Below, in pieces: positions 2,417-63,679 of a stretch of 64,000 nt of DNA; position 1 is the first letter of the stretch; each line of letters starts with the position of its first letter. The position numbers and the translations under genes are program-made. The notes beneath the pieces were generated by a model. The model was not told where the DNA came from, did no database searches, and saw nothing but the letters and a program-made list of their open reading frames with translations. Source of the stretch: Sipunculus nudus. Taxonomy: Eukaryota > Annelida > Sipuncula > Golfingiida > Sipunculidae. The stretch is from assembly GCA_026874595.1 (NCBI GenBank), contig CM049320.1, forward strand, positions 4,467,464 through 4,531,463. The letters are read 5' to 3'.

Positions 2417-3594
2417 GTATCCGCAAAAACAGAGTTTTGCGGATACTATGTTTTCAGCCCACTGCTGCCGCCACCGCGTAGGTGTCCGGAGAACTCCTCC
2501 GTAACCGCTGGGCAGAATTTTACGAAACCCGGGATTTTGTTAGGGTCACATGTGAACTGCTGCGCCCCAATTTTGTTTTGACCTCTGACCTTTCCTCAGT
2601 GCTCTGCGTCTGTTTGTGCGTCTGTTTCCACACATAAACCCACATATCTCGGGAACCGTTTGACCGATCAGGAAAATTTTTTGCACAAATGTAGCCCTTG
2701 GACAGCTTTATAACATACACAAAAAATGGTGGCTCCACCTGCAACCATGTTTGCACAGTGTCCATCTGTTCGTCTGCCTTGGGTTAAAATCACTCATATC
2801 TCTTCAGTGGTTTGACTTATTCACCTGAAATTCGCAATGCGTATACATCCTGGATAGCTTTTCTGATTTTATGACAGGTGGCGCCACCTACATTCACGTT
2901 TACGCTGCAGACATCCAAGCTCATATCTCGGGAACCGTTTGACTGATTGGGCCAAAATTTTGCATGTGTATAGATCTCACATACCTCTTTATCATACACA
3001 AAATTGTGTGGCGCCACCTGCGGCCATTTTTGCACAGCTCCCGTCTATTTGTCTGCCATGGGATAAAATCACTCATATCTCAGGCAGTGGTTTGACATAT
3101 CTGCCTAAAATTTTGCAGGTTTATACATCCCCGACAACTCTCTTGATTTTATGACAGGTGGCGCCACCTTCATTCTAGTTTATGCAGCAGATATCCAAGC
3201 TCATATCTCGGGAACCGTTTGACCAATTGGGCCAAAGTTTTGCATGTATATAGTTCTCACATAGCTTTTTATCATACGCAAAACTGGTGGCGCCACCTGC
3301 AACCATTTTTGCACAGCGTCCATCTGTTTGTCTGCCAAGGGCAAAAATCACTCATATACATGTAGTGGTTTGACTTATCTGCCTTAAATTTTGCATATGT
3401 ATACAACTTGGACGGCTTTCTGGATTTTGTGGTAGGTGGCGCAACCTACATACACAATTTGGCTGCAGACATCCATGCTAATATGCAACACCTCACTCTA
3501 TTTCCCCTTGCCACTCAATCCATGCCTCACTTCACCCGTTCAACTCTGATTTAGGCGGATACACGTAGTCGCTTGTTGACTACCCGTATTCTAG
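2417..3594 (+). mobile_element. Family B element, complete copy
   Basis: The 5' hairpin is GTATCCGCAAAA / TTTTGCGGATAC (2417-2446), preceded by ATAATT. The 3' end has ggcggatacac, which complements the 5' terminus, then hairpin GTAGTC-loop-GACTAC (3565-3583), ccgtatt and CTAG (3591-3594) followed by T. The body is about 1.2 kb and is built from alternating units of about 130 and 150 bp, each containing the palindrome AGGTGGCGCCACCT (2876-2889, 3156-3169) or a close variant (3286-3297). The short open frames inside are not convincing genes. Confidence 0.8.
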
Positions 3595-3858
3595 TTAAAA
3601 TTTTAGGGATGAGCAAGTTTTCTTGAGCTCTGTGATCCATGATCATATTAAGTTCCAAAATTCTATATCTGTGTGTCTTCAGTTTTAATGCCTTCCCTTC
3701 TATACCCTTATTTGTTTTCCTTGTTGAAAAAGCATTCATTCAAATCATATCAACTGTAAAGTATTGCACGTTTTTGGAAAGATACCAGGTTGTAAAAGAT
3801 CGGGATTTTTGTTAGATCCTCTATCATTGGTGTATATGTATAAATGTGTAGGTGCATG

Positions 3859-4199
3859 TGGGTATTGCTAAACACTGAAAAGTTACCAAAAAGTAAACAA
3901 AAAGTTACTGAAGTAACTTTTGGTACTTATTGGTATTTCTTAGTCTTTTTAGTTTTAGTAAATTTGTAACATTTTGTTAATCTGTTGTGCGTTTCAGTCA
4001 CTTTTCATCATATAGGTTAAAAAGAGCACCCAATTGGCTGACTTTAGAAACAGTTTGAAATAACTTTTTTGTCATTTTTAGTGTTTTCATTAATTAAAAG
4101 TACTCATGTTGTCTTTTCAGTAATTTTTTGTAACTTTTCAATTACTTTTCCGTACTTGTAGTTTACTTTTGCATACTTTTCAGTGTTTAGCAAGTCCCA
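3859..4199. mobile_element. MITE-like inverted-repeat element, about 341 bp
   Basis: The left end TGGGTATTGCTAAACACTGA and onward pairs with the right end, which reads as its inverted complement up to TTTAGCAAGTCCCA. Arms are about 38 bp with a few mismatches. The interior is AT-rich, with several agttac/gtaact stretches that could fold. No open frame is present and a target-site duplication is not clear. Confidence 0.7.
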
Positions 4200-6209
4200 A
4201 TGTATGTCACTCACATAGACCATGCATTATTAAAAAAAAGTACTGGAACAGTATTAATAAAATTAAGAATGTACAGTCAATATTTAACTTACAATCAATT
4301 TTGTTACATAGCTTGTAAACATCAATTGATCACTGATCATGTTCTCCACCATTAGCTAGGTCACATGATAATGAACAGACAGGATAGTGATAAACCATTG
4401 AAGGTGCACAACCCTGGCTGCCAGGTGTTTCAAAATGAAGCTGGTGTCATCAAAATCAATATTCAACCTTTATGGTTTGGGTACTCTCACCTGAAAATAA
4501 GAAAAACTATAATTTTCCATAATTGATAGATTTTGCAAATTTTTTTCAACTGGATTATTTAGTTATCCTAAACAGACATGCATTTGTACGATAAAAGGGG
4601 GTATAGATGCATTATACAATGCTTACATTATGGAGGCTAAAACAACAACTGAACTCACACTCTTGTGTCTAAAAAAAAAACCCACTCAACTAGTGAACCT
4701 ACATTTTCATTTATACGGACTGCAACATTCTTTCTGTGAACCTACACTTATGAATCCACATATTTCAAAATTATTAAATACTGTTTTATATATATATTAT
4801 TCATATCATTTTAAAGTGGAAGACAGTTGCATGGGCATTGAAACCACATTTAAAGTTTTTTTAATGCTAATGTGTGTTCAGTTGCTGTTTAACCCCTGAA
4901 GTTCAGCCCCATATAGGGCACCTATACCTATAAAAGAGATAACATCTGTAAGACTGTAAACATCTTAATCAGCAGTACCATCACAGCCCAGCTCCCCTAA
5001 CACATACACAATGTTCTTGTAAAATTAATATTAACATTAAATATTTTGAGTGGACATGAAGATTAAGGAGACAAGATATAAACAGAGAAAAAGAATATTC
5101 TTGGCTGATGACAAATTTTCTACATTCCATTAACTAGGACCATCAGGACACAGGGGGGTATCTATTTATTGCAATACAAAGAAAGGTACATGTATCATAT
5201 CTGTATCATCAGAATAGCAGATGTTTCCATATTAATTAATTTGTTGATAATATTCTGTCATCAAGTTGAATTGATTCATTGAAATCAACTTCCAGCATTT
5301 AAAACCTTGTATACATTCTTCAGTGCCATTTGAACTGAAACCTTGTTTGTCATAGACAAAACAAGTCAGCTTATTGGCTTTTCTTATTGAACAAAATTAT
5401 TCAATGTTTAAAAAAAATGTTACGGTATAGATTTTTTAAAATAATCTGGCTATCTTTTTAAGATGTAGGCAAAGAGTTTCACTTACTTTCTTATCTATTT
5501 GCTTAATATTATTAATGGGCTGCAGTGTGGATAGTAATGTAAGTGTAGAATGGCCATACATATGTATTTATGTTATGATATAAGATCTCATCACAATCAT
5601 AACAGTAACATCAGCAAATTCATGTTCATCACAAAGACTGCATAAAATTCCCTGAACTTTAGAAGTTCATTTCAGTGGATGTATTCATAATTTTATAATA
5701 GAACCATGGAATGTAATTTGCACTATATATTGAATAAGTTGTTAAATTAGGATGTAAAAATCTGTTGATAATACATATGAGCTAAATTAGTGTTTTAACT
5801 TAATATCCTTTGGACTGGCATCTCTAAAGTCAATTCCTTTAACTTGTGTAGACCATCTCCTTTACCTTGCATAGAGAGTCTGTGTCCTGGCTATTTTTAG
5901 GATTCTGGGTCCAGGCCTGTGAATGAGTTGAGAGTTTTCATGTCATCAGGATGGTAATAAATTAAGAAATCATTGAGTCGTAGGGCACAATGAAGCCATA
6001 AAAGGTATACTAGTTTGGGGATAATTACTGGAGCAGCATTTCAGGTGTCTTGATTTAACTAAACTTGTGGGGAATTACTAATATCTCAAGCCACTGGCAG
6101 ATCCAGGAATTCGAGAACGGGGTGGGGTGGGGGGGGGGGCACTAATATGGTTTAGCGGTTGATGTGTAATAAGAAAAAATAAGTTCTTAAATTGTGTACA
6201 TAGTTTTTA
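4200..6209. other. No gene seen
   Basis: AT-rich non-coding sequence. The 89-codon frame at 4630-4899 crosses an A run, has no domain-like composition and no splice partners. Nothing else is recognised. Confidence 0.6.
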
Positions 6210-6722
6210 TATGCCCGTCATATGACAGGAGTATAATGGTATACCCTATTAAAGGTCCTTCGGTCCTTTAACTTTTAGTGACACTGCGATAACTTAGCAG
6301 GGCTTTGATGGATTTTCACAAAACTACTTCCCAACAGATTATCTCACATGAGTTCAATTATGGGCATACTTAATAAGGTCACGGGTCACTAGACTCCTTT
6401 ATGGTGTTACCCTGATCACTTATGAAGAATACAAAGGATTTTGATAAAACTCATAAAAAATGTTAATCAGTAAATTATCTTGCATAAGTTTTATTTCCAA
6501 CAAAATTGATGCATAATTAATGAGATCAGAAGTCACCACACTTTGGAGGTACCTTGGTTATTTACCAAAAAGCCTATGCATTTTCATGATACTCATTAAA
6601 AATATTTACTTATAAGAGTTTCTCACATGAATTACTTTCTCATCAAAATTCATGCATATTTAATGAGGTCAGGGGTCACCAGATACATGATAGGCATATT
6701 ATGCATATTTGTGGTCCTGTAG
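6210..6722 (+). mobile_element. Family D element
   Basis: The 5' end ATATGCCCGTCATATGACAGG is a near-perfect hairpin after TTTTT. Internal phrases such as aatgaggtcaggggtcacc recur in the copy at 46256-46653. The 3' end is decayed: atgataggcatatt, which complements the 5' terminus, then a weak hairpin region near 6700-6722. No gene is seen. Confidence 0.65.
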
Positions 6723-9700
6723 AAATGTACACATCATTTCTGATGTTTTTTGTGTGGTTTTTAAATTGCATGGAGGTTACCATCAAAACATTAGAACTGA
6801 CTTGGGCAAAGACCAGAATTCCTGCGCATATTTAAGTCTATTTTGCATGTGAAAAATGCCTGCTGCCCGTGAGGAAATTAAGCATGTTTGGTCTGATATT
6901 TGACCTCAACTTTGTCAATTAACCTTTATATGAGCATGGGGAGTATTTATACTCAGAGGCTATTTTTCGTGTGTGTGTACATATGTGGGTTCTGCGGTCA
7001 TCAATGATGATCTTTAATCCAGTCTTTTCCAGTTTCTTGACCATTACTGTAATAAGTCAGGACAACACTCCTGACAGTAAATACTACCTCTTATTTGCAT
7101 CATCATAGGTTTAACCAGTAAATCAATAATTCTAAAGTATAATCAGTCTCCATTCATAACCTCATCAATCATCCTTATTGTATTCTCATTTTATAGGAGG
7201 ACCAATATCTCAATAATTCCTGGCTGGAATGCCTTAAAATTATGCAGGTTGACCATTGTACTAAATCAGTTTTAAGTGGTATTCATTGGTCATAAATTTA
7301 TGTTTGATGATTGAGAGAAGAAAATGAATGATGACTGATGATAAATTAATTATTTCATGAACCTTCTTAATTACTGTGTATTCTTCTGTATAGAATTACA
7401 CCTAAAATACTGACTGTGTCTGTCTTGTACAACACACTGATTGTTCAAGATTACAGCCGAGTTCTTGACTCCTGTTTAGAGCACAAGGTCCAGTTTTGTC
7501 TTCTGGATCATAATTTTTTTGGGGATAAAATGACTATGACTCATTTTCATGTGAAAACATAATTGTTTGTGATCAATTTTGCATAAATGCAACCATTTTA
7601 ATCAATTATGAAAGAAAATGACCAATAATCAATTAATTGGCACACCTACAAGTTTCCTGTTTATGTTGAGAAGGAAAACTGCTGTCATATGACTTTTTAG
7701 CTCAGTTTGCTTTTGAGCTTCAAATAATGGAATTCAGTCAGGCACACATGTATATCCTTGGCATCTTGCACTGTTTTAAAACAAATAAAAAAAGTTTTTA
7801 ATGATGTGACCAAGATTTGTGTATGTCGGACTGTTATGTCATAGTGTCATCATAGAACTGTGACTTAGTGATTTAGGGGGAGGGGGCACAAAGGTCCAGT
7901 TTTATTGTCAGCCAAGTGTCATGACCCATGGGCAACCTGAGCCAACCTGTTTCTTGAATTTTGAGAAAGCCAAGTTATAGTCATATCATTTCAACAGATG
8001 TGGGTTAATAAACATCAGAGTACTTTACATGCCTTCAGGATGACAAAGAAACTACCCATTCCCTGGTTCATATCTCAGATCAGATTAAAGCTTGCATATT
8101 CTTGGATTTGTAATAGTTACAATTGTATTGTTATTGATCCTCTGTTCAAGTGATAATATAAGTAAAGTGGGCATAGATCATTTAAGTCCAGAAATTAAAT
8201 TTTCAGCTGTTTGTCAGAATTATATTGTAAAGTTATCTGCAAAACAAGCCTAGTATGCCCAAATGAACTTCAATAAAAATGTCACCCATATCAAGTTTTG
8301 TGATTCCTTATGTAAAGTTATCTGGTAAAAAGTAAATTTGTAAAATTCTTTTTTTGTTGAAAAGGCTTAGATACCGGCTCAGTAGCCAGTGGTTCCAAAC
8401 CATTTCTAATACGAATCCAATTATCCACTTCATGAATTTAGTGCTGTATGAACACTCAATTTGTTTCAGAATGGTTTAGACCTAGGTTTGAATCAGCAAA
8501 TGAGTCACAGCATGAGCTCTAAAGCTTGTGTGAGGATGCTGTTGTATTGTCCCACATATGAAATGTACACCTCATGCATTGAAAGCACACTATAGGCTTG
8601 AAACTGATTTGATCAATCTGCATTGGCAGCATTGCTAGAAATGTTATAAACTGGTTTTGTGTGTGAAAGAGGTAGCGATTATAACCTTTCAAAGAAACAA
8701 ATATTGATGTACCCTGAGGTGTGAATTTGAAGCTCTGGGTAAAATAAATCACTTTATCAGTCCCTGCCTCCAGGTCTCAGAGGAGGTTTTTGTCCTCGCT
8801 GTGAGGGGTCAAGGATGCTCTAGGCGGTCCTGTTTCTGGACAGGTTTATGAGGATGGGATGACAGGGGAAGAATAGGCTGAGTGTGTGAATCCAACAGGG
8901 CATGATTGTGAAAGGCACAACTTAGTGGGATAGGGGAATGAACTTGGTAATTTTATGTATTAGTTTTAAAAAAGGGATTCCTGGTACTGTCCCTGTCAGG
9001 AGGAAAATAAGGTTTGACCTCACAGCAGGCGACATGTATATTGGGTGGGATGATACATGGAAGAACAGAGTGCACCCATACTGTAATCAGGTCAGTAAAG
9101 GACTACTTGTGTAGATCAATGATTATATCAGAGGTGCAGGGTTTAACCATTGAAACTGACTTACACCCTAAGTATATCCCAAAACACCAGGAATTGTAGG
9201 AATCTATCTGTATACTACTAAAATTGTCCAGGCTGTTTGTTTGTTTGTTTGTTCCTGAACTTACACAGAAAAGGGCCATGACAGTGGGCCAGTTTTGCTA
9301 TCAGCATCAGTCATATGCTCTAACATACAGAATGCAGACCAATATGGCCCTTCCACTTTCACACAATACCCAGCAGCATCACATCGCAGGTCTGTCGCAC
9401 AAGATCACATCGCTCACCATTGCTGACCTTCACCTTGGCCCATTACCACAAAGAGGTATATAGATTGGTTCCATATCGACCACCAGACATCCATACCATA
9501 CAGGTCTGGGGAGTTTGCTGCCTTACGGGTCTGGCCACAAAAAAGCTGCAATATACCCCTCCAGACCTCTGCAACAGTCCCCTATTTTCTATTCTCTTAA
9601 CAGGTCACTAAAACTATGCAAAAATGTTTTTCCTCTACACTGTACACCTTTTAACTTGTCATCTGTATCTACAAGATAAGTCTCAATGTTGTGGCAACTC

Positions 9701-10467: not shown

Positions 10468-13094
10468 AACTCACCTGACTGTAAGTCAACTGAGGTATAG
10501 AAGTGGCGCTTTGTCCGTCATCCGTCCAGCCATCTGGCTGTCCATTAGCAGGGCACAAATCATAACTGCTGGTCCTAGAAACATCTAAGTAAACATCCTG
10601 GGAGGTCAATAAAAAATCTCAGTGGAAACCTGAAATTAGGTCACTGCGACCTATATCCTCCGAGCTATGGGGCTTGCAAGTACCCCCCAGAATAATAAAA
10701 TAATTTGATACAAAACCTCCAATATCTTGATAAATAATGCATGGATTGTCATGAATCATTCCTTGAATATTGACCACGACTAGTTTTGTCAGTTCCCAAA
10801 AAGTGGTGGCACCACCTGTATTTTTAGCTCAGCTGACTATAAGTCATCTGAGCTATAGTCGTGGTCCATTGTCCGTCATCCGTCCGTCTGTCTGTCCGTC
10901 CGTCTGTCCGAATGCCCGTCCGTAAGACTTAGTTCCTTCGGGATATTAAGGAAAAACCTCAATTTTTTATTAGAAATCTATTTTCACACTTCAGGACTGC
11001 CTAATATCAAAACCACTCTTCTGGTTTTCTATATATTTACCATAAATATTCCTCTATATAGTTCCTATGTACATGCCAGAAATTAAGTCAGTATTATATA
11101 ATTTAAAAAAGTTATGGGCCCAAACATAATGGACTTTGTAAAAAACTCAGGAAAGATATTTGATCACTCATCACAAAACATGTTAAAGCTATGGACTTTT
11201 TTCCAGTAATATGACTTTAATTAATCAAAATTAAATTTTATACCCAAAATTAGATCAAAATCTTTTAAATTTTTTAAAATATTAGCAAAAATAAAAATTG
11301 GTACCTTAAATTTTGCCTACTTTATCCACGGTTTGTTTTTTCCTGTAAGTACTGTGGATTTAATTTTCAAAGCATGTGCACATAAGGATTTACTCTGTTA
11401 AAATCTGAAATTTGAAAATAAAAGCTGCAAAATTAGGCTAGATATTGAATTTTTTTGGAGGCTCTTGTTGTATTCCCTTACATTGTCAAGCAGTCCACTT
11501 GTGTGACTGTAGGTCATTCAGTGCAGCTCTCTATGCTCCCCAGGCGACCTAATGTTATGCAATCCCATCACTAGGGCAAGCCCTCTCCACTGAGTTGAGC
11601 TTGATCAGGCTGTCTGCAGTTAATACCATACCACAGGGAGCCTTTTTCTCTGGCACCCCCCCCCCCCCCACCCCACCCCATTCTGTTGACAGACCTGTAC
11701 TATGAACTAGATGAATCTTAAAATTAACATTTTTTTCAGCAACAAGCAGTAACAACGGAGACCCCTCCCCCCACCCACCCCTTCAATACACAGGACTAAT
11801 AAACAAGATGAATCTTATAATTTTAATGTTAAATAAATTCTTTTTTGATGAGACTTGGACAATTTTGAATTTTTTGAGAAAAAAATTTCAGGAATTTATC
11901 CTAATATTCAAATGTGATAAAATATTAGGATCTAATGTAAGTGCTAACTGACAAGATTTAAGAAGATATAAATACTTTGTAGCATTTCATTCATATATCT
12001 TAAAGTTGGCAGGGCCTAGGTGTGAATAACACTGTTAACTTAGTATTAAAATTAGGAATATTGGTCAAACTTTGTGGGGTTAATTTTTAACTCATATGGC
12101 CATATATTTAACTTTTGAAAACTTAATTACCTTCTCACATTATTTGTTTATGAAATGTTACTTTTATATAACACTTACCGTCGGCCTATTTGTTCCCTTG
12201 GTGCATCACTAAATGGTTTAGCTCATGTCCATTATTCTATAATTTACAGAGTTTCATTTTAGCAGGGCCATTTTCTCATAGCTTTTCTAATGATAATATA
12301 CATGAAAAACCAAAAGAAATATTTTGCAGTTACTAATATTTTCCAAAATTCAGCTGAGCGATGTGGGCTTGGGGCCCTTGTTTTGTAATTTTAACAATTT
12401 TTTTCTATATTTTAACAATAAAATGACAACAATCATGTCAGTTTCTCAGCTGTGATTACATCTTTTGTCCTAAATCTGGTGTGTTTATTGATGTCCTATA
12501 TAGTAATCACCGTCTGTCTTTTTGTCTGTCTGTCTATCTGTCCATCCGTCCATCCACACAAATTTGTTTCCAGATGATAACTGCAGGTTGGATTTACACA
12601 TGGATTTCAAACTTTACTTACATATGGCCCACCACTTAAGCTAGAACCTAAATGATGTTTGGGCCCATCCATTCAAAAATTAGTTTTCGGATGATAATTC
12701 TGCTTTGGATGGACATATTGGGTATCAGACTTGATTTATTAATGACCCAACACTTAAGTAAATTCATTTTGATTTTCAGGGTCCAGAGATCAAAGTTAAA
12801 GATCACAGGAGCCACATCTTTAAAAAGATTGTGGATGCACTGTAAGTCTGTAAATCAGTTGCCCAAAATTAGGAATTCTGTAGGTTTTGAGGTTACCTGG
12901 TCAGAGGTCAAGGTCACTTTTTAAAAAGATTGTTACAATAAATCTAAAAGCTGCAAGTTCAAAGATAATAAGTTCTAATATTTTTTTGTCACAGGGTCAT
13001 TGGTTAAGGTCACAGGACTGTCATTCTGAAAAATTTCTTTAAAAAATACCTTATGGACAAATTCAGCTGAGCGTCGATACCCATCGGTCCCTAG
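10468..13094 (+). mobile_element. Older family C-like element interrupted by another C copy
   Basis: A diverged C-type 5' end (AACTCACCTGACTG...AGTCAACTGAGGT) starts at 10468 after a T run. A younger C copy occupies 10826-12380. After it, A-like internal phrases run at 12560-13020 (ggatttcaaac, aaagattgtggatgca, ggtcaaggtcac). The 3' end at 13055-13094 is C-like: TCAGCTGAGCG, small hairpin CGATacccATCG, then CTAG followed by TTT. Treating both flanks as one element is inference. A 90-codon frame at 12652-12924 is repeat shadow. Confidence 0.5.
10826..12380 (+). mobile_element. Family C element, complete copy
   Basis: The 5' end AGCTCAGCTGACT-ataAGTCATCTGAGCT forms a hairpin, preceded by TTTTT. 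A gtccgtccgtctgtcc-type leader follows. The 3' end has CAGCTGAGC, which complements the 5' terminus, then hairpin GGGCttggGGCCC and CTTG before TTTT. The body (about 1.55 kb) is AT-rich with no gene. A C run of about 14 lies near 11659. Confidence 0.78.
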
Positions 13095-16499: not shown

Positions 16500-16595
16500 G
16501 AAGGTGCCGTCTGTGGGGGACATAGCAATGGTGAGCGTCTGTCCGTCTTTCCGTCCATGCTTAAACCATAGTATCCTGACTTTGTCTGGAGATAC
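16500..16595 (-). mobile_element. Family A 5'-end fragment, minus strand
   Basis: On the minus strand the segment begins GTATCTCCAGAC, loop aaa, then GTCAGGATACTATGG (16595 down to about 16567), flanked by ATT as in the full copies. It fades out within about 100 bp in a ccgtctgtcc-type leader. No 3' end is present. Confidence 0.65.
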
Positions 16596-17650: not shown

Positions 17651-19428
17651 GTAAGTCCTTGCTGTTTGGATATCTCCAGTCTTATCCTGATCCTTAACAG
17701 TCACATGACAATCCATGAAACAGCAGGATCAGAGTGCGACTGGCTACTAGAGGAATGTTAATTGATTCTTGACATGGTTTATAGTGTTTTAACAATAAAA
17801 GCTATCAAGAGTATTTATAAAAAGATCTTAATATATATAATTCTTATTAAATTATTGGTAAAATTTTTTATTGGTGTTATAATCAATAGAGTATTATTGT
17901 ATCGCCAGACAAAGTCTGGAGATACTATGGTTTAGGCACGGTTGCGCTGCCACCGCTGCCACAGAGATTTTGTTTGGACGCGATAACTCAAAAAATATTT
18001 TACAGATCTTTACCAAACTTGACATGTGCATAGATATGGATGAGAGGATGAAGGGTCATGACCTTTACTTGGAGAATGACCTTGACATTGAATAGGTCCA
18101 TTTTGGGGGAAAATTACACAAATTCTTAAATATCTCGAGGAAATCTTGCAGGGATTGATCCAAAAATCAACTTGACTGAAGATCTTAGATAGTGTTGTCA
18201 TGTACCAGGAACTGGTGGCACCACTTGTTATCCTTTTCTTGTTTTCATGCATTTAATACCCCCATCATTGCCACTTAACAGTACTGTGAGCATTATAGGT
18301 AAGATTTCTTTCATATTATGCATATTCATAGACATGGGTTATGGGATGATGTATAATTAAATTTGGGTCATGACCTTTCCTATGAGAGTGACCTTGACCT
18401 TGAATATTGCCATATATGGTGAAAGTCACACTAAATCACAAATATCTCAATAAGGGATGCATGCATTGGTCCAAAAATCAAATTGACCGAAGATCTTGGA
18501 TAGCTTTGTCTTTTGCTTATGACGGGTGGTGCTACCTTCTGTCTTCCTCTTGTTTTTCGTGGCTTTTAATACCCTATCATTGCCACTTGACAGTACTGTG
18601 ACCATTACAAGTCTAAAAGTTATTAGCGAACCTGTGAGCTTTTGCGATGGCGCAGCGTCGTCCGTCCATCGTCCGCTGTCCAGGGCTGGCTTTCCGCCGT
18701 CCATGGTTGTAAGTCAGTAACCGTCGGAGCTAGCAGCTCAAAATTATATGTAAGAATTAGTCACATGTGAAACTTTGTGCGCTGGAGCTTATTATCAGGT
18801 ATCTGCATTAATATAGATTTTATAGAGAAAAAGCTTAAAAACATTTAAAAAACTTCTTCTCTGTAACTGTTCAGCCAAATTGTCCAACATTTCACAGAAA
18901 TGATCATTGGAACAATCTCTCTCAAGTTTGTTCGAATGGTTCAAGTTTGGAGATTTTTGGCCGAGTTACAGGAGGTTGAAATAAGTCATCTGTCCAAAAA
19001 AGTACACTAAAATTAAAATCTCAGAAACGGCTAGAGCTATAATCACCAAATTTTATACCAATGTTTGTCACATATGTCATATCTGATTTTGAGGTATTGA
19101 TGGCGCCACCTACACTGATGTGTTTTTTACAAGCAAAAATGTAATTTTTAACTCTTCGAGCTCACACACTGATATATGATGAAACTGTTAAGCTCATTGG
19201 TTTAAACTTTACAAGAATTATTCTATGGTAGGGTTCTGCCAGTTTTATAAGAATAGATTGGGTAAATACAATTTTAAAAAAACATTGTAGCCAATTGAAA
19301 AAGGCTTTCTGTATTTGAAAACAGATTTTACAACATGCTGACTTTCAGCAGCCAAGTCAAGAGGTCACTCAGTACAAAGAGGTGGGGTCCAGACATCACC
19401 ATGGCAACTGACCTGGCTCTGGGTGGGT

Positions 19429-19495
19429 GTCTAGACAATGTGTCTAGACGTCTAGACACAGCGTCTAGACGTCTAGACACAATGTTTAGATGCAG
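19429..19495. repeat. Cluster of TCTAGA palindromes
   Basis: TCTAGA occurs five times in about 55 bp. The segment 19439-19460 is a perfect 22 bp palindrome centred on tctagacgtctaga, and 19461-19480 is a second copy with one mismatch. Short frames across it on both strands are mirror images of each other and not credible genes. Confidence 0.85.
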
Positions 19496-19567
19496 AATTC
19501 CTAGATTATTGGAACTATATCCTTCAACTGTTTTGGTTTGCATTTTAAGCTAATTGGGTTTATCATC

Positions 19568-20457
19568 AGGTCACATGTGAACTGGTGCGCCCTCATTTTT
19601 GGTTGACCTCTGACCTTTCCTCGCTGCCCAGCGTCCATAAGTGCGTATGTTTCCACACAAAAACCCCCATATCTCGGGAATGGTTTGACCGATCAGGCTA
19701 AAAATTTTGCACAAATGTTGCCCTTTGATAGCTTTATAACATACACTGTAAATGGTGGCGCCACCTGCAACCATTTTTGCACAGCATCGATCTGTTCATC
19801 TGCCTTAGGATAATAACACGTATATCTCAGCAGTGGTTTGACTTATTCACCTGAAATTTTGCAGGTTTATATATCTTCTTCATAGGCAAAACTGGTGGCA
19901 CCACCTGCAACCACTTATGCACAGCGTCCATCTGTTCATCTGCCTTGGGATAAAATCACTCATATCTCAGCAGTGGTTTAACTCATCCACCTGACTTTTG
20001 CAGGTTTATACATCCTGGACAGGTAGCGCCACCAACATTCTTGTTTACTCTGCAGACATTCAAGCTCATATCTTGGGAACCATTTGACCGATTGGGCCAA
20101 AATTTTCTTGTGTATAGATCTCACATAGCTCTTCATCATTAGCAAAACTGGTGGCGCCACCTGAAACCACTTATGAACACCGTCAATCTGTTCATCTGCC
20201 TTGGGATAACATCACTCATATCACAGCAGTGGTTTGACTTATCCACCTGAAATTTTGCAGGTTTATACATCCTGGACAATTTTCTTGATTTTAAGACAGG
20301 TGGCACCACCTACATTCATGTTTACGCTGCAGACATCCATGCTAATATGCAACACACCTCACCCTATTCCTTGCCACTTAATCCATGCCTCACTTCACCC
20401 GTCCCACTCTGATTTCTGCAGATACACATAGTCGCTTGTCGACTACCCATATTCTAG
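19568..20457 (+). mobile_element. Family B element, 5'-truncated, nested in family A sequence
   Basis: It begins with the B-type phrase caggtcacatgtgaactgg, equivalent to 2544 and 62904, but lacks the 5' hairpin. The 3' end is intact: hairpin GTCGCTTGTCGAC region, then CTAG (20454-20457) followed by TTT. GGTGGCGCCACC palindromes or variants recur along it, for example 20150-20161. Confidence 0.72.
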
Positions 20458-47395: not shown

Positions 47396-49328
47396 CTAGA
47401 TATTTCTTGGCACCGCAGGTGCCATAGTATCCCCAGACAATTAATCCCCCCTCCTTTAAGAATAGGCCCCCCATCTTCAGCAACATTAATATCAGATCAC
47501 ACTCATAGAAAAGGTCACTCATGGAAAAGGTCATGACCCCCATTTCAATATACATCATCTCCTAACCCATGTCTATGTATATGCATAATATGAAAGAAAT
47601 CTGTCCATCAGTCTTTGACTTATAATACTCACAGTACTGTTAATTGGCAATGATGGGGTATTAAATGGCACGAAAACAAGTAAAAGAATAACAGGTGGCG
47701 CAACCAGTTTCTGGTACATGACAACACTATCCAAGATATTTGGTCAAGTTGATTTTTGGACTAATCAATGCATCCCTTATTGAGATATTAATGATTTTGT
47801 GTGATTTTCACCATATATGGCAATATTAAAGGTCAAGGCCACTCTCATAGGAAAGGTCATGACCCCCATTTCAATATACATCATCTCCTAACCCATGTCT
47901 ATGTATATGCATAATATGAAAGAAATCTGTCCATTAGTCTTTGACTTATAATACTCACAGTACTGTTAATTGGCAATGATGGGGTATTAAATGGCACTAA
48001 AACAAGTAAAAGAATAACAGGTGGCGCAACCAGTTTCTGGTACATGACAACACTATCCAAGATATTTGGTCAAGTTGATTTTTGGACTAATCAATGCATC
48101 CCTTATTGAGATATTAATGATTTTGTGTGATTTTCACCATATATGGCAATATTAAAGGTCAAGGCCACTCTCATAGGAAAGGTCATGACCCAAATTTAAA
48201 TAAACATCATCCCATAACCCATATCTATGTATATGCATAATATGAGAGAAATCTGTCCATTAGTTTTTGACTTATAATGCTCACAGTACTGTTAAGTGGC
48301 AATGATGGGGTATTAAACGGCACGAGAACAAGTAAAAGAATAACAGGTGGCGCCACCTGTTTCTGGTACATGACAATACTATTCAAGATCTTCGATCAAG
48401 TTGATTTTTGGACCAATCCATGCATCCCTTATTGAGATATTAATGATTTTGTGTGATTTTCACCATATATGGCAAAATTCAAAGTCAAGGCCAATCTAAT
48501 AGGAAAGGTAATGACCCCAATTTCAATATACATCATCCCCTAACCCATGTCTATGTATATATGCATAATATGAAAGAAATCTGTCCAATAGGTTTTGACT
48601 TATAATGCTCACAGTACTGTTAAGTGGCAATGATGGGGGTATTAAACGGCATGAAAACAAGTAAAAGAATAACAGGTGGCGCCACCTGTTTCCGGTACAT
48701 GACATTACTATCCAAGATCTTTGGTCAAGTTGACTTTTGGACCAATCCATGCATCCCTTATTGAGATATAAATGATTTTGTGTGATTTTAACCATATATG
48801 GCAATATTCAAGGTCAAGGCCACTCTCATAGGAAAGGTCATGACCCAAATTTAAATAAACATCATCCCATAACCCATGTCTATGTATATGTATAATATAA
48901 AAGAAATCTGTCCATTAGGTTTTGACTTATAATGCTCACAGTACTGTCAAGTAGCAATTTTTGGGGTATTAAACGGCATGAAAACAAGTAAAGAATAATA
49001 GGTGGTGCCACCAGTTCCTGGAACATGACAACCCTATCCATGATCTTCCATCAACTTGATTTTGGGATCAATCCATGCAAGATTTCTTGAGATATTTAAG
49101 AATTTGTGTGATTTTCCCCAAAATTGGATCTATTCAAGGTCAAGGACACTCTCCTAGTCAAGGTCATGACCTAATTTTAAATAGGCGTCGTCCTCTCACC
49201 CATATCTATACTTATACCAAGTTTGGTTAAGATCCGTGATATATTTTTTGAGTTATCACGCCAACAAGATTTATATGCGGCGGCGGCACGGGGGACCAGT
49301 ATGAAAACAGTACTTTGTCTGGGGATAC
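47396..49328 (-). mobile_element. Family A element, minus strand, with 327 bp tandem units
   Basis: Read on the minus strand it starts GTATCCCCAGACAAAGTA and ends with hairpin GGCACCTGCGGTGCC then CTAG (47396-47399) followed by T. Its body holds about five tandem units of 326-329 bp, with equivalent points at 47543, 47870, 48196, 48522 and 48851. Each unit carries the GGTGGCGCCACC palindrome or a mutated form of it. No protein gene is seen; the 93-codon minus frame at 48523-48804 is repeat shadow. Confidence 0.8.
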
Positions 49329-50455: not shown

Positions 50456-50552
50456 AGCTCGGCTGACTATTCAACATTTGTCTACCCCTTCTTCCAAATC
50501 ATATTTTATGATCATAAATAACAGCTGAGCGCCGTGACCCATGGGCCCCTTG
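50456..50552 (+). mobile_element. Family C minimal element, 97 bp
   Basis: The 5' end AGCTCGGCTGACTAT follows TTTTT. Only about 40 bp later comes the 3' end AACAGCTGAGCGCCGTGACC with hairpin CCCATGGG and CCTTG followed by TT. Both ends of family C are therefore kept with almost the whole body deleted. Confidence 0.75.
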
Positions 50553-51619: not shown

Positions 51620-51674
51620 AGCTCAGCTGACTATAAGTCATCTGAGCTATAGTCGTGGTCCATTGTCCGTCGTC

Positions 51675-51706
<32 letters not shown>

Positions 51707-54700
51707 CGTCCGTAAGACTGGCACGTTTTGACACCGTTGGACCTACGAATCTGAAATTCGGCATACAGTTAGATGTCCCCAAAATCTCCTACCATGCCGA
51801 AAATTGGGTCAATAGGACTTCGTTCCTTCGAGATATTAAGGAAAAACCTCAATTTTTTTTTAGAAATCTATTTTCACACTTCAGGACTGCCTAATATCAA
51901 AACCACTCATCTGGTTTTCTTCATATTTACCATAAATATTCCTCGATATAGTTCCTATGGACATGCCAGATATTAAGTCAGTATTATATAATTTAAAAAA
52001 GTTATGGGCCCAAACATAATGGACTTTGTAAAAAAATCAGAAAGATATTTGGTCACTAAAGACCAAAAGTGTTAAAGGTAGGGATTTTTTTCCAGTAATA
52101 CAACTTTAATTAATCAAAATTTAATTGTATACCAAAAATTAGATCAAAATCTGTTAATTTTTTTTAAATATTGGCTAAAATATAAAATTGGTACCTTAAA
52201 TTTTGCCCAACTTTGGCCACGGCATGTTTTTTTCCTGTAAGGACTGTGGATTTAATTTTCACAGCATGTATACATAAGGATTTAATCTGTTAAAATCTGA
52301 AATTTGAAAATAAAAGCTGCAAAATTAGGCTAGTCATTGAATTTTTTTGGAGGCTCTTGTTGTATTCCCTTACATTGTCAAGCAGTCCACTTTGATGACT
52401 GTAGGTCATCCAGTGCACATCTCTATGCTCCCCAGGCTGTTGGCATAATTTTAGATGTCCCCAAAATCTCCTACCATACCAAAAATTGGGTCATTAGGAC
52501 TTCTTTCCTTCGAGATATTAAGGAAAAAAACTCTGTTTTCCATAAAAAAAGCCATTGTTACACTCAAGGCTGCCTAATATAAACCACTGATCTGTTTTTG
52601 ATCGTATTTAGTATTCACATTCTTTCATACATTTTCTATGAACATACCAAAAATTAGGTCAGTATTGGGTATTATTTTGATGTTATGGGCCAAAACATAT
52701 TGCAATTTTTAAAAAAAATCAGGAAATATATTTACTCACCTAACATGAGAATAGCTGAACCTAGAGACTTGTTTTCCAGGAATATAACTTTATTTAATCA
52801 AGATTCAATTAATTACCCAAAATTAGATCTGAATTTTGCAAATTTTTCAAGTTATTAGCATAAATAAAAAATCAATACCCTAAATTTTGTCCAACTTTGG
52901 CACTGTTGATTTAATTTTCACAGCATATATACATAAGGATTTAAACTTTAAAATCTGAAATTTCAAAGAAATTGATTGGAAAGAATAGCTTTTATTCATG
53001 TTTTCATACACCATGTCAAGTGTTGTTTACATCTAGCCCACCTAGTAGTACAGCCTTCACTTGCATTATGTAACCCACCCCAGGCAGCTTGCCTTGGGTC
53101 AGCTTGGCCACTACCAGCAGGCTTCCCCTCTGCCCTGCACACCCCCCCCCCCCCCAGATGGTGCATAAACTAGATGAATGTTATTATTTTCTGTATTTGA
53201 TTCATTCTTATTCTAGGCTATGCTACATTTTAGATTTTGTATTGTACCACCAGGGATAGTGTACATTTAATTGTGTCCACAAAGTGGTGTATTGCTATGA
53301 AAGTGTGGATGTTCATGAGATAAGTAATTCCTTACTTCAGAAGAGTAAAAACTTCACCAGGTGTGAAATTGACTATTAATTCCAGTAATAAATTAAAACT
53401 GGGATAGTAATTAGCACAATGATATTGTTTGTCCCTCATTCAACCAACAGTGTGTATACTTTATTTGAAAAGATGTTTTATTTTATCAAATTTACTTAAT
53501 CTTTTATTTTATTTTGGTGAATAAAATTAAGCATGTACTGAAAACTCCAATGTGCAAAACTTTTTAATAGTGATTCAAGGAATATTCTTGTAGATGCCAT
53601 GTTGTGGCATTATTTTCTTTTAAATTCAGTTTAAACATTTATGATTTAAAAATAATAAAATATATGTGTATGCATAATATGACCCAATATGAGATACACT
53701 CTGGATATATGATGATTGCAACTTTTGCAACAATTCTAATATTTTAACTTATAGTTTCAGTTTTTTACTCTGTATATATAATGATTGCAACTTTTGCAAC
53801 AATTCTAATATTTTAACATATATTTTCAGGTTCTTTTATTAAAAATTTATAAAACCTGTAAATAAAAAAATGATTCAGATAAAAACTTCTTAATGGAAAA
53901 AGTGGATATGCTTAAAAAAAATAGGATTATATATAAACTTAAATGCATTATTCCCTTGAAAGTGAAATAAAGGTATTAGTCCATTCTGTCCACTTGCCTG
54001 TCCATCTGTAAATTTTCATATGCATCACAGTATCTCAAAACTTTTACTGTTTTTCTTCATGACAGTCTTGTCAGATATTAGTTTGCAATCATATATTTAG
54101 AACTTTACTATAACCAAGTAGGAGGGCCCCTTTCCTCTTAGCTTTTCATATTCTTATATAAATGAAAAGCATTACAATAGAATATTTCTACATCCACCTT
54201 CGTGCTTCCCTCACTTTTCCCTTCTCCGAACCCCATCCCTAAGTCAGCCTCAGTAAGCAAGAACAAGATGAATCAGATATATTCATACTTTAATATTTTG
54301 TATAACTATTCGTCCATAGGTACCTATGTACATGCCAGAAGTTATGTCAATATTGTGTAATATGTAGACATAGTGGGCATCACAATAATGTACCTTGTCA
54401 AGACTAAAGAGATGTTGTGTCATACAGTCACAAATTCATAAATCACTTCATCAGCATAGTTAATCATAACATCATATCTGTCAAATTGAAAGCTTGCAGA
54501 CTACCATACACTTTAGATCCTTCAACAAATAGCCTTATCATCATTCTACTACTGCTTATTACTGCTGTCATTGCATTCATATTTGCTCAAATATATCACA
54601 ATTTTCAACCCCTCCTAAATAAATAAAAAATAAACCACTGTATTTGACTCTATTAATCCATCAGTCAGGTAATTTCATTTATCATTTACTCACATATTAC

Positions 54701-54833
54701 ATTACATTCCTTTATAATAGCCCAACATGTCCATGATATTCATAAGCTTTATTGACTCGATATAGTATCACAGTGGAGAAACATTTATAGTCCAATCACG
54801 ATCAGCTGAGCGCCGTGACCCATGGGTCCCTTG
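51620..54833 (+). mobile_element. Family C element, complete copy in intron 4
   Basis: Ends match the copy at 29283-31861 almost base for base. It is longer because of an extra segment of about 650 bp (roughly 53640-54290) that the other copy lacks. That segment contains a 69 bp direct repeat carrying TTGCAACTTTTGCAA. A 69-codon frame at 54417-54626 has an identical twin at 31445-31654 within the other copy, so it is part of the element; it has no recognisable domain. Confidence 0.82.
53701..53829. repeat. Two direct copies of a 69 bp sequence
   Basis: The phrase atgattgcaacttttgcaac begins at 53712 and again at 53781. It contains the inverted repeat TTGCAA ctt TTGCAA and lies inside the extra segment of the C element. 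Confidence 0.75.
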
Positions 54834-59941: not shown

Positions 59942-62256
59942 GTATCCCCCCCAGACAAAGTCGGGGGATACTATGTTTTCATACCGGTCCTGCTGCCGCC
60001 GCCGCATATAAATCTTGTTGGCGCGATAACCCAAAAAATATTTCATGGAACTTTACCAAACTTGGTATATGTATAGATATGGGTGAGAAGACGAAGCCTA
60101 TTTAAAATGAGGTCATGACCTTTACTAGGAGAGTGTCCTTGACCTTGAATAGGTCCAATTTTGGGGAAAATCACACAAATTCTTTAATATCTCAAGAAAT
60201 CTTGCATGGATTTATCCCAAAATCAAGTTGATGGAAGATCATGGATAGGGTTGTCATGTTCCAGAAACTGGTGGCGCCACCTATTATTCTTTACTTGTTT
60301 TCGTGCCATTTAATATCCCCAAAATTGCCACCTTACAGTACTGTGAGCATTATAAGTAAAAAACTAATGGACAGATTTCTTTTATATTATGCATATACAT
60401 AGGTATGGGTTATGGGATGATGTTTATTTAAATTGGGGTCATGACCTTTCCTATGATAGTGGCCTTGACCTTGAATATTGCCATATATGGTGAAAATCAC
60501 ACACCTCTTATGATATCTCCAGTGTTGATAGCCATATGGATATCAAACATGACTTATGTATGGCCCACCACTAAAGTAAGAACACTATAGGTTCTAGGGT
60601 CATGAGGTCAAAGGTCAAGGTCAATGGACTGGCATTTTAAAAGATACTGTGGATGCATTTTAAGCCAAACTTTCATCCTAGGTCTTCCATCTTGAATATA
60701 TAGCTCACTTGCCAATAGTGGATGATCCATATAAATTTTGGGGTCACAAGGTCAAAGGTCAAGGCCACAGGAGCTATCTGTTCAAAAATTAGTTTCTGGA
60801 TGATAATTCCTGCTTTTATTGATGTATGGATTTCAAACATGACTTGTATATGTCCCATTGGAAAAGCAAGACCCAAATTGATTTTGGGGTCATGAGGTCA
60901 AAGGTCAAGGTCACAGGACACATCTTTAAAAAAATTGTGGATGCATTTTCAGCCAAACATTTCATCTCAGATCTTTCATCTTGCACATATAGTTTACCTG
61001 CCAAGGGTGGAAGACCCCTTTCAATTTTGAGGTCACAGGGTCAAAGGTGAAGGTCACAGGAGCCATCTGTCCAAAAATTAGTTTCTGGATGATAATTCCT
61101 GCTTTTATTGATGTATGGATTTCAAACTTGACTTGTATTTGACCCATTGGAAAAGCAAGACCCAAATTGATTTTGGGGTCATGAGGTCAAAGGTCAAGGT
61201 CACAGGACACATCTTTAACAAGATGTGGATGCATTTTCAGCCAAACATTTCATCTCAGATCTTTCATCTTGCACATATAGTTCACCTGCCAAGAGAGGAA
61301 GAACCCTATCAATTTTGAGGTCACACGGTCAAAGGTGAAGGTCACAGGAGCCATCTGTCCAAAAATTAGTATCTGGATGATAATTCCTTCTTTTGTTGAT
61401 GTATGGATTTCAAACTTGACTTGTATTTGACCCATTGGAAAAGCAAGACCCAAATTGATTTTGGGGTCATGAGGTCAAAGGTCAAGGTCACAGGAAACCT
61501 CTTTAAAAAGATTGTGGATGCATTTTCAGCCAAACAATTCATCTCACATCTTTCATCTTGCACATATAGTTCACCTGCCAAGAGTGGAAGACCCCTATCA
61601 ATTTTGAGGTCACAAGGTCAAAGGTGAAGGTCACAGGAGCCATCTGTTCAAAAATTAGTTCTGGATGATAATTCCTGCTTTTATTGCTGTATGGATTTCA
61701 AACCTGACTTGTATATGTCCCATTGGAAAAGCAAGACCAAAATTGGTTTTGGGGTCATGAGGTCAAAGGTCAAGGTCACAGGACACATCTTTAAAAAGAT
61801 GTGGATGCATTTTCAGCCAAATATTTCATCTCAGATCTTTCATCTTGCACATATAGTTCTCCTGCCAAGAGAGGAAGAACACTATCAATTTTGAGGTCAC
61901 AAGGTCAAAGGTGAAGGTCACAAGAGCCATCCGTCCAAAAATTAGTTTCTGGATGATAATTCCTGCTTTATTGATGTATAGATTTCAAACTTGACTTGCA
62001 TATGTCCCATTGGAAAAGCAAGACCCGAATTGATTTTGGGGTCATGAGGTCAAAGGTCAAGGTAACAGGACACATCTTTAAAAAGATCAAAGTCACAGGA
62101 CCAACATCTTCAACAAGATTGTGGATTGTTAGATGGAAGAAACAATAAATATGCCAAGTGTCAGTATATGCTGCTAAAAATGGAGGTCTATTTTTAAAGG
62201 GGGGGCCTACTATGTCTGGGGATACTCTGGCACCTGCGGTGCCAAGAAATGTCTAG
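59942..62256 (+). mobile_element. Family A element, complete copy
   Basis: The 5' hairpin GTATCCCCCCCAGAC / GTCGGGGGATAC (59943-59971) follows TTAATT. The body has one unit of the 327 bp type, then five units of about 289 bp (agttnctgga-like phrase at 60791, 61080, 61368, 61657, 61944). The 3' end carries ggggatactctggcacc, the GGCACCTGCGGTGCC hairpin and CTAG (62253-62256). Unlike the other copies, the 3' flank is C rather than T. It and the copy at 1-2279 share both unit types in the same order. Confidence 0.82.
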
Positions 62257-62758
62257 CTTTTTATTGGCTCAGTAGAATGGGGAAAAAAATTATTTGCTTT
62301 GTTTCTCCATCTTTCTGCCTGTTTTAAATATTTAATGTTCATGAATAAACTTTTTTTTTTTATAAGCACTGTTGAATTAAATTTCATATCCTGTATGTAT
62401 ATGCAAGGGTGTTGTAACTCTCACCATCCCCATCTTCATCCCACTGAGCCTTTGCTCCTTGGCACTGTGAACAATAGTTCTATGGCTATAGCATAAAATT
62501 TAATAATTAAAGAAAATATCTACAGAGAGACAGAGGCGTTGTAACTCTGATCATAACACAACCCCCCCCCCCCCCCATCAAGTCATTGCACCTGTGGAGT
62601 GGGGACGTTATGGCAAAAGTATACATATCATAAAATTGATAAAAAAGGTTTACCAAATAAATTGAATCTCATCAGACAAATGTGTAAACTGTTGAACTGT
62701 CAACAGCTTATCAAAAATGTAACCAATGGAAAGGCATGGTTAGATCTCAAATATTATT

Positions 62759-62806
62759 GTATCCGCCAAAACGAAGTTTTGCGGATACTATGTTTTTGAC
62801 CGGGTT

Positions 62807-62837
<31 letters not shown>

Positions 62838-63679
62838 GTTCGTTTCTGGAGAACTCCTCTGAGACTACTGGACAGATTTTTCCGAAACTTACACAAATTA
62901 TCGGGTCACATGTGAACTGGTGCCTAACCAAGTGACCTTGACCTCTGACCTTTCGTCTCTGCCCAGCGTCCGTTTGTGCGTCTGTTTACACACATAAACC
63001 CATATATCTCGGGAACCGTTTGACCGATCCGGAAAATTTTTTTACACAAATGTAGCCCTGGGATAGCTTTATAACATACACAACAAAAGGTGGCGCCACC
63101 TGCAACCAGGTTTGCACAGTGTCCATCTGTTCATCTGCCTGGGGTTAAAATCACTCATATCTCTGCAGTGGTTTGACTAATTCACCTAAAATTTGGCATG
63201 CATATACATCCTAGATAGCTTTCTCAATTTTATGACAGGTGGCGCCACCTACATTCACGTTAACGCTCCACACATAAACCCATATATCTCGGGAACCGTT
63301 TGACCGATCCGGAAAAAAATTTTACACAAATGTAGCCCTGGGATAGCTTTATAACATACACAACAAAAGGTGGCGCCACCTGCAACCATGTTTTCACAGC
63401 GTCCATCTGTTTGTCTGCTGTGGGATAAAATCACTCATATCTCTGCAGTGGTTTGACTTTTCCACTTGAAATTTTGCATGTGTATATATCTTGGATAGTT
63501 TCTCGTTCAAATAACAGGTGGCGCCACCTACAATCATGTTTATGTGGCAGAGATCCAATACTAATATTTTACATATGTAACTCTATATCCCCTTGCCACT
63601 CAATCCATGCCTCACTTCACCCGTCCTTCTCTGATTTTGGCGGATACACGTAGTCGCTTGTCGACTACCCGTATTCTAG
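62759..63679 (+). mobile_element. Family B element, complete but short copy
   Basis: It opens with GTATCCGCCAAAA / TTTTGCGGATAC right after ATTATT and ends with hairpin GTAGTCGCTTGTCGACTAC (63650-63668), then CTAG (63676-63679) followed by TT. A (GCC) run at 62807-62839 replaces the mixed ccgccaccgcg of the copy at 2417. Palindromes AGGTGGCGCCACCT occur at 63088-63101, 63237-63250, 63368-63381 and 63516-63529. Confidence 0.8.
62807..62839. repeat. GCC trinucleotide repeat
   Basis: About ten gcc triplets lie just inside the 5' end of the family B copy. The equivalent position in the copy at 2417 is only ctgccgccaccgcg, so the run expanded after insertion. Confidence 0.9.

What the first reader, a model, noticed from the sequence alone, without database searches (positions are those of the whole stretch)
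2417..63679. Four unrelated repeat families share one terminal architecture, like Helitron2/Helentron ends
Families A, B, C and D differ in sequence, yet each has the same layout. (1) The 5' end folds on itself: GTATCCCCAGAC/GTCTGGGGATAC in A, GTATCCGCAAAA/TTTTGCGGATAC in B, AGCTCAG/CTGAGCT in C, CCCGTCATATGACGGG-like in D. (2) The 3' subterminal region holds the inverse complement of that 5' end: GGGGATAC in A, GCGGATAC in B, TCAGCTGAGC in C, ATGACGGGCATAT in D. (3) A different short hairpin follows, then 4-10 bases ending CTAG (A, B) or CTTG/TTTG (C, D). (4) The right flank is T in nearly all copies and the left flank ends in TT. Asymmetric terminal inverted repeats, a 3' hairpin and insertion between T and T are what I recall for Helitron2/Helentron-type rolling-circle elements. 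The repeated use of one plan with new sequences suggests several lineages mobilised by related machinery.
Basis: partly seen in the sequence, partly recalled or inferred. Interest (0 to 1): 0.8.

Follow-up and report, generated by a model that had tools for sequence, protein, structure and literature searches.

The report
Non-autonomous Helentron-type transposons with satellite cores
Much of the repeated DNA in this stretch of an animal genome, probably a bivalve's, looks like non-coding rolling-circle transposons of a kind already described in shellfish; one family shares its right end with likely helper elements elsewhere in the same genome.

Summary
In the window 13 of 13 left flanks end in TT and 12 of 13 right flanks begin with T. 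The 5' hairpin is strong in A, B and C copies with an intact second arm, not significant in the one D copy. "Unrelated" is too strong: A and B have homologous 5' ends and both end CTAG.

(1) 12,227 B 5' cores (control 1) and 10,402 B 3' ends (control 0). (2) Four insertion events (three B, one C) compared with paralogous empty sites show entry into T-runs with no duplication beyond Ts; B's target reads TNATT|T. (3) 143 Helitron Rep matches were listed; two elements tested further carry PIF1 helicase and an endonuclease match. Two Rep elements end in a family C terminus, one identical to it over 32 bases; a third, close relative does not.

So A, B and C fit non-autonomous Helentrons (HINEs; Pearl and Cg_HINE in bivalves); D fits by structure only. 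No partner was found for A, B or D. Known kind. Side lead: dense nuclear-receptor-type motifs.

The parts
1..2279 (+). Family A element, 5' end beyond the window; central 146/289-bp repeats; 3' end CTAG|T
2417..3594 (+). Family B element, both ends (5' hairpin GTATCCGCAAAA/TTTTGCGGATAC; 3' subterminal GGCGGATAC, hairpin, CTAG|T)
6209..6760 (+). Family D copy with a 5' end (ATATGCCCGTCAT) and a degenerate 3' part; right boundary approximate
10468..13094 (+). Outer, degenerate C-like element interrupted by the inner C element; 3' end CCCTAG|T
10826..12380 (+). Family C element nested in the outer one; both ends; paralogous empty sites found
16564..16595 (-). Solitary family A 5' end with decayed hairpin; 3' end not identified
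17899..21608 (+). Family A element, composite, with other repeats inside; 5' hairpin and 3' end CTAG|T
19541..20457 (+). Family B copy without 5' end inside the A element; 3' end CTAG|T; left boundary approximate
29283..31861 (+). Family C element, both ends; last 32 bases identical to those of a Rep element at C7
46257..46653 (+). Family D 3' half with ATGACGGGCATAT, hairpin, TTTG|T; abuts the 30-bp array
47396..49328 (-). Family A element, both ends; second arm of the 5' hairpin missing
50456..50552 (+). 97-base family C copy, little more than the two ends
51620..54833 (+). Family C element, both ends; last 32 bases identical to those of a Rep element at C7
58015..59940 (+). Family C element with 5' end; 3' end not identified, right boundary a guess
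59942..62256 (+). Family A element, both ends; right flank C (the one exception)
62759..63679 (+). Family B element, both ends

Best explanation
A, B, C and probably D are non-autonomous Helentron-type (Helitron2) rolling-circle transposons: short conserved ends around a core of satellite-like repeats, with no protein of their own seen. They are moved in trans by Helentrons in the same genome that encode a Rep nuclease, a PIF1-type helicase and, where that part was tested (two elements), a C-terminal endonuclease match. SHOWN: the end layout; insertion of B and C into T-runs without target duplication beyond Ts; B target preference TNATT|T; two Rep elements of one clade ending in a family C terminus. 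INFERRED: the Rep nicks at the 5' T|element junction, one strand is unwound and copied, the 3' hairpin with the 3' inverse complement marks the stop (the 5' arm pairing with the 3' arm in place of the 5' hairpin, as proposed in PMC3627910), and the strand is joined into a T-run opened at the target. Related cores under different ends suggest that cores are swapped or captured between elements.
For: Layout and flanks. Copy number: 12,227 B 5' cores at up to 1 mismatch, control 1; 10,402 B 3' ends at up to 2 mismatches, control 0. Target, 30 B loci: -1 T 30 of 30, -2 T 29 of 30, -3 A 25 of 30, -5 T 30 of 30; right TT 12 of 14 copies with a recognised 3' end (the two G copies look like one ancestral insertion). 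Background TT 0.11. Without L005, L019, L022, L023, which share an outer copy with another locus, TT is 25 of 26. Empty sites: B at H38 against H35 and H37; B in L010 against its own repeats and L018, B in L004/L005/L022/L023 (one event), and C at window 10826 (71-73% matches, the weakest). Partners: PF14214, 143 matches listed, 150 of 195 candidates scored. Pfam on five stretches: DUF6570, OTU and Helitron_like_N in L034, PIF1 and Exo_endo_phos in L061, both parts of one 2,235-codon frame; Helitron_like_N, PIF1 and an Exo_endo_phos match below its cut-off in H17; only Rep-side matches in L060 and L057, whose later parts were not given. H17's 3' kilobase against the genome (40 of 1,980 first-look candidates scored, 47 matches): 6 other copies cover it at 89-99% and stop within -1 to +6 bases of the C terminus (query 1022); 4 of the 6 have a Rep match about 3.7 kb upstream on the same strand. 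Of 16 matches that begin at query 870-926, 14 stop at 1020-1028, one runs to the query end (1031) and one stops at 998; one of the 16 (C15) is a piece of a longer copy. L079, 3.4 kb past a second Rep match: its last 32 bases are identical to window ends 31861 and 54833. H17, H13, L056, L058 and L060 form one group in a Rep tree.
Against: H13, 93% identical to H17 over 6 kb, departs from it 38 bases past the stop codon and shows no C end in 3.8 kb (only a one-mismatch TCAGCTAAGC). In one search several more diverged copies match only to 517-871 of the query and show no C end there. No partner found for A, B or D: six 4.5-kb 3' stretches and six 4-kb 5' stretches of the other Rep group were compared with the window by BLAST at E 1e-3, which can miss short diverged ends; H34, H17 and H13 also by motif. 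The 5' end of the C partners was not located. H17 is 58% and L079 68% alike to window C over the last 60 bases, below the 80% subfamily rule of PMC4067079; the window C end at 12380 has a different hairpin (34% ungapped to H17 over 32). 3' hairpins of C are weak as folds; D's 5' hairpin is not significant. The number of Ts exchanged is unresolved. The stretch between the Rep match at C7:71189229 and L079 was not fetched; continuity rests on the 1,658-codon open frame, and the endonuclease-like end in L079, recognised by eye only, lies in two frames. C copy number is unknown, so a chance neighbour is not formally excluded.
Confidence: 0.9

Rival explanations
1. They are MITE-like deletion derivatives of a DDE (cut-and-paste) DNA transposon with subterminal inverted repeats, as bivalve Pearl elements were first described.
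For: Inverted repeats near both ends, thousands of copies of B; Pearl was first classed as MITE-like (PMC5874043, passages).
Against: Inverted repeats are asymmetric (5' at the end, 3' some 22-45 bases in, followed by another hairpin); no target duplication at four insertion events; elements sharing the C 3' end lie with Rep/helicase genes. No search for DDE genes was made.
Confidence: 0.03
2. They are canonical Helitrons (Helitron1), whose 3' ends are CTRR after a hairpin; CTAG in A and B fits.
For: CTAG fits CTRR and a hairpin lies about 10 bases before it.
Against: 5' ends are not TC; insertion is T|T, not A|T; a 5' hairpin and asymmetric inverted repeats are present; C mostly ends CTTG and D TTTG; the two elements tested carry an endonuclease match.
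Confidence: 0.04
3. They are satellite or segmental repeats with palindromic edges spread by recombination, not transposition.
For: Cores are tandem repeats related between families, elements are nested, and four B loci look like one insertion copied with its surroundings.
Against: Exact common ends, a target motif, empty sites and thousands of dispersed copies.
Confidence: 0.02

Closest known systems
HINE (Helentron-associated interspersed elements), PMC4067079
   Same: Subterminal inverted repeats, 5' partner arm or palindrome, 3' palindrome, tandem or microsatellite core, T-rich target without modification, variable number of flanking Ts, Rep/helicase/endonuclease partner (passages).
   Different: End sequences were not compared with published ones; B shows a longer target preference, TNATT|T, where those passages speak of TT or T-rich sites.
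Cg_HINE of Crassostrea gigas and Pearl/CvA/MgE/DTC84 of bivalves, PMC7492417, PMC5874043
   Same: Left module with inverted repeat and microsatellite (GTCY, as in family C's GTCCGTCC), satellite-like core, right module with subterminal repeat and palindrome; related flanks with unrelated cores and the reverse (passages).
   Different: No sequence-level comparison could be made here; whether these families are already in Repbase is not known.
Helitron2 with asymmetric terminal inverted repeats, PMC3627910; FoHeli of Fusarium, PMC5148889
   Same: Same plan of two hairpins and asymmetric repeats; FoHeli1/2 insert between TNAT and T, close to TNATT|T here (passages).
   Different: That paper found no endonuclease domain in fungal Helitrons; the two elements tested here have a match to one.

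Membership tests
HINE / non-autonomous Helentron | 5' near-terminal inverted repeat, self-paired by a downstream arm | tested here: met
   A 2 of 4, B 2 of 2, C 4 of 6 copies; D 0 of 1
HINE / non-autonomous Helentron | 3' subterminal copy of that inverted repeat followed by a separate palindrome | tested here: met
   palindrome weak in C; D exact over 13 bases but from two copies
HINE / non-autonomous Helentron | Insertion into T-rich or TT target without target duplication | tested here: met
   B three events, C one event; A and D by flanks only
HINE / non-autonomous Helentron | No coding capacity of its own | tested here: inconclusive
HINE / non-autonomous Helentron | Family C shares its 3' end with a Rep/helicase/endonuclease element | tested here: met
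   H17 and its copies, and C7:71189229; 5' end not located; H13 does not show it
HINE / non-autonomous Helentron | Families A, B and D share ends with such an element | tested here: inconclusive
   No A, B or D end attributable to a Rep element in the flanks fetched; B copies there are insertions
HINE / non-autonomous Helentron | At least 11 identical bases of subTIR with the partner (family rule of PMC4067079) | tested here: inconclusive
   3' side identical over 32 bases, of which about 10 (TCAGCTGAGC) pair with the 5' end of C; partner's 5' end unknown
HINE / non-autonomous Helentron | At least 80% identity with the partner over the last 60 bases (subfamily rule of PMC4067079) | tested here: not met
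   L079 68%, H17 58%: they are not the partners of the same subfamily
Canonical Helitron (Helitron1) | 5'-TC, A|T insertion, no 5' hairpin | tested here: not met
   the CTRR 3' end is met by A, B and one C copy only
MITE of a DDE transposon | Target site duplication of fixed length | tested here: not met
   (B and C)
Helitron superfamily | Rolling-circle mechanism (circular or tandem intermediates) | not tested
   A head-to-tail junction pattern was sent repeatedly but the genome tool did not complete it

The most novel reading that the evidence does not exclude
These Helentron-type elements act as carriers of regulatory sites. Families A and B, and D at one site, hold AGGTCA nuclear-receptor-type sites (direct repeat with spacer 1: 18 in the window against 0 in 20 shuffles; A also the inverted AGGTCATGACC: 11 against 0), and A and B hold the palindrome GGTGGCRCCACC (30 counts over both strands, one of them in the outer C-like element, against 0). 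In B the direct repeat is among the best conserved 13-mers outside the ends, so it may be kept by selection, for the element's own transcription or by host factors; if the 13 of 14 copies examined are typical, B alone would have spread it about ten thousand times. Helitrons that spread heat-shock elements in Caenorhabditis (PMC6927752) are a precedent.
Probability: 0.12. Interest if true: 0.7.

Novelty: new member of a known kind. Interest (0 to 1): 0.36.

Why it matters
It shows that a sequence-only reading of end architecture correctly pointed to rolling-circle transposons. It ties a non-coding family to the terminus of Rep/helicase elements in the same genome, and sharpens the B target from TT to TNATT|T. 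The general picture, satellite-like repeats carried by Helentron-type elements in bivalves, is already published.

Tried and rejected
Rejected: A, B, C and D as four independent inventions (A and B share 5' ends). Rejected as a 5' end of H17: the C-like TTTTTCAGCTCACCTGA at H17:2293, because homology with H13 runs on upstream. H33, H34, H35, H37, H38, H41, H42: no termini of the Rep elements found in the flanks fetched. Viral contigs (3 scans) and genome contigs (1 scan): 0 hits. Searches for print on transcription-factor motifs in such elements: one search gave 0 papers; some searches listed 3, 1 and 3 papers that by title and start of abstract are about other things; they were not read, and no wider claim of absence is made. 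Tandem head-to-tail junctions and copy counts for A, C and D could not be obtained.
Full report
WHAT THE WINDOW IS. The window is C15:4467464-4531463 of an unnamed 1,426,538,692-base assembly in 153 contigs. No tRNA or tmRNA was found. I take it to be a bivalve because the architecture matches the published oyster elements; that is inference, no taxonomic test was made. Of the 51.9 kb outside a 12-kb array of a 30-bp unit (34134-46256), about 23 kb was assigned to the repeats discussed here.

NAMES. H34, H17 and H13 are Rep-gene regions at C11:50385293 (L061+L062), C17:35630192 (L063+L064) and C13:9109249 (L065+L066). H42, H35, H37, H38, H33 and H41 are the flanks L067-L078 of Rep matches at C13:66180677, C4:36174940, C8:80139053, C3:43366583, C7:31578448 and C11:18295342.

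THE OBSERVATION. Ends were listed on both strands and folded with DNA parameters against 400 random stretches of the same length. Left flanks end in TT at 13 of 13 5' ends, right flanks start with T at 12 of 13 3' ends; the exception is 62257 (C). The 5' hairpin is clear in A (2 of 4), B (2 of 2) and C (4 of 6) and not significant in D (1 copy). A separate 3' hairpin is clear in A (3 of 4), moderate in B and D and weak in C. In D the 3' 13-mer ATGACGGGCATAT is the exact inverse complement of the 5' end of another copy, but no D copy in the window has two good ends. So the plan is real for A, B and C and likely for D.

CORRECTION. A and B are not unrelated: A 59942 aligns with the two B 5' ends at 80-81% over 40-43 bases, both run GTATCC...GGATACTATG into a CCG run, and both end CTAG. 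Where they differ, three segments differ together: A reads GTATCCCC / GGGGATAC / 3' GGGGATAC, B reads GTATCCGC / GCGGATAC / 3' GCGGATAC (best-preserved copies; other copies carry mismatches). That is expected if the 5' arm must pair with both partners. Central repeats cross family lines: the second A repeat type matches the repeats of the outer C-like element at up to 76% over 170 bases (E 9e-24), and the third A array matches B repeats at 68-85% over short stretches. So ends and cores are partly independent modules, as described for Cg_HINE in Crassostrea gigas (PMC7492417, passages).

COPY NUMBER. The B 5' core occurs 12,227 times in the genome at up to one mismatch (control 1) and the B 3' end 10,402 times at up to two mismatches (control 0). 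Counts for A, C and D were not obtained.

TARGET. In the 30 B loci fetched (the first 30 places on one contig), the base before the element is T in 30, the one before that T in 29, position -3 is A in 25 and T in 5, and position -5 is T in 30; of 14 copies with a recognised 3' end the next two bases are TT in 12. The two G cases and two others (L004, L005, L022, L023) look like one ancestral insertion carried in a larger repeat; without L005, L022, L023 and L019, TT is 25 of 26 and ATT 23 of 26. All 6 A and B left flanks in the window fit TNATT. The T at -5 is also present in empty relatives, so it belongs to the target. Fusarium FoHeli1/2 insert between TNAT and T (PMC5148889, passages).

EMPTY SITES. 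(i) B upstream of a Rep gene: filled GTCAGATATTT|B|TTTTTTGTAATTTT (H38), empty relatives GTCAGATATTTTTTAGTAATTTT (H37, H35). (ii) B in L010: filled CTGCTTATT|TTTCACAAGAGG, empty CTGCTTATCTCACAGGAGG in its own repeat and CTGCTTTTATTTACAGGAGG in L018. (iii) B in L004/L005/L022/L023: at CACCTGTATTTTT in a repeat present uninterrupted in the same loci. (iv) C in the window at 10826, in the same kind of repeat and at the same T-run (71-73% identity, the weakest case). None shows a duplication other than Ts; how many Ts change is not resolved, as PMC4067079 also reports.

AUTONOMOUS PARTNERS. PF14214 (Helitron_like_N) has 143 matches listed (150 of 195 candidates scored); seven lie in open frames of 2,229-2,426 codons. 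Pfam on five stretches found DUF6570, OTU and Helitron_like_N in one part (L034) and PIF1 and Exo_endo_phos in another part (L061) of one frame, and Helitron_like_N and PIF1 plus an Exo_endo_phos match below its cut-off in H17. This is the Helentron domain set of PMC4067079 (passages). In H17 the frame is followed 1 kb later by TCAGCTGAGCATCATGACCCATGGGTCACTTG|TTTTT, 88% identical over 32 bases to window C ends 31861 and 54833. Searching the genome with that kilobase gave 47 matches from 40 scored of 1,980 first-look candidates. Six other copies cover it at 89-99% and stop within -1 to +6 bases of that terminus; four of the six have a Rep match listed about 3.7 kb upstream on the same strand, two (C8:69023922, C17:37211172) have none listed. 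Sixteen matches begin at 870-926 of the query: 14 stop at 1020-1028 (terminus 1022), one runs to the query end and one stops at 998; most look like deletion derivatives, one is a piece of a longer copy. Several more diverged copies match only to 517-871 and show no C end in this search. A second Rep element, C7:71189229, has 4.5 kb downstream a terminus whose last 32 bases are identical to window ends 31861 and 54833, followed by TTTAG. A FastTree of Rep domains, midpoint-rooted, supports not examined, groups H17, H13, L056, L058 and L060, apart from 23 others and from L055 and L057; L031 and L032 were left out. L060 stands for C7:71189229, which has the same score but was not itself fetched.

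AGAINST. H13 is 93% identical to H17 over 6 kb but leaves it 38 bases past the stop codon and shows no C end in the 3.8 kb that follow, only a one-mismatch TCAGCTAAGC. So the C terminus was seen in two of the three members of this group whose 3' flank was read. By the rules of PMC4067079, L079 and H17 fail the subfamily rule (68% and 58% over 60 bases) and the family rule cannot be judged without their 5' ends. No A, B or D end attributable to a Rep element was found; I read the B copies at H38, H17 and H13 as insertions (shown by empty relatives only for H38).

HOW IT PROBABLY WORKS. The steps shown are the ends, the target and the partners' domains. Nicking, strand displacement, stop at the 3' hairpin and joining are inferred from the Helitron literature; no intermediate was tested. 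A planned search for head-to-tail copies did not complete.

SIDE LEAD. Against 20 dinucleotide shuffles of the window without the array, AGGTCA occurs 142 times (mean 26.7): in A 11.8 per kb, D 6.3, B 2.7, C 0.7, unassigned parts 1.2; AGGTCANAGGTCA 18 times (A 13, B 3, D 1, unassigned 1), AGGTCATGACC 11, GGTGGCRCCACC 30 counts on both strands, the last three with none in shuffles (an earlier set of 30 shuffles gave a mean of 0.03 for the direct repeat). Tandem copies are not independent, so these counts overstate the evidence. Of 14 B copies with both ends the direct repeat is present in 13 and the palindrome in 14. In 28 B 5' modules it is among the best conserved 13-mers outside the ends, 0.975 against a mean of 0.870, level with TCCGGAGAACTCC. 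Names such as nuclear-receptor or DR1 are recalled; no binding was tested. Helitrons that spread heat-shock elements in Caenorhabditis are a precedent (PMC6927752, passages).

VERDICT. A known kind of element, well identified for A, B and C; new families at most. Papers were seen as search listings and passages only, none in whole.

Noticed in passing
34134-46256: 12-kb array of a 30-bp unit (about 404 units, holding GTCAGTACTGAC) between exon-like sequence and the family D 3' half; it abuts D at 46257.
   Followed up: no
A, B and D elements, e.g. 481-2106, 60605-62059, 2579-2591, 46448-46460: AGGTCA sites in direct and inverted arrangement far above shuffles, and GGTGGCRCCACC palindromes in A and B cores.
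   Followed up: partly
18625-19540: Another repeat (AGCGAACCTGTGAGC...) and a TCTAGACACTGTG run interrupt the A element; ends not worked out.
   Followed up: no
50456-50552: A 97-base C copy that is almost only the two ends, without the second 5' hairpin arm.
   Followed up: partly
27275-27676: Perfect 201-bp tandem duplication, so probably recent.
   Followed up: no
   Followed up: no
L074 (C3:43369694-43373694), H17:2369-3222, H13:12-108: B copies or pieces lie upstream of Rep genes in three of the nine Rep regions read; the first is an insertion with empty relatives.
   Followed up: partly
H34 = L061+L062, H13 = L065+L066: Rep frames carry coding tandem repeats near the start (KKQERLGSQRIRQNK-like; KKEMLRNNRSKLPDK-like), and diverged repeats of the frame's last part lie downstream of the gene.
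   Followed up: no
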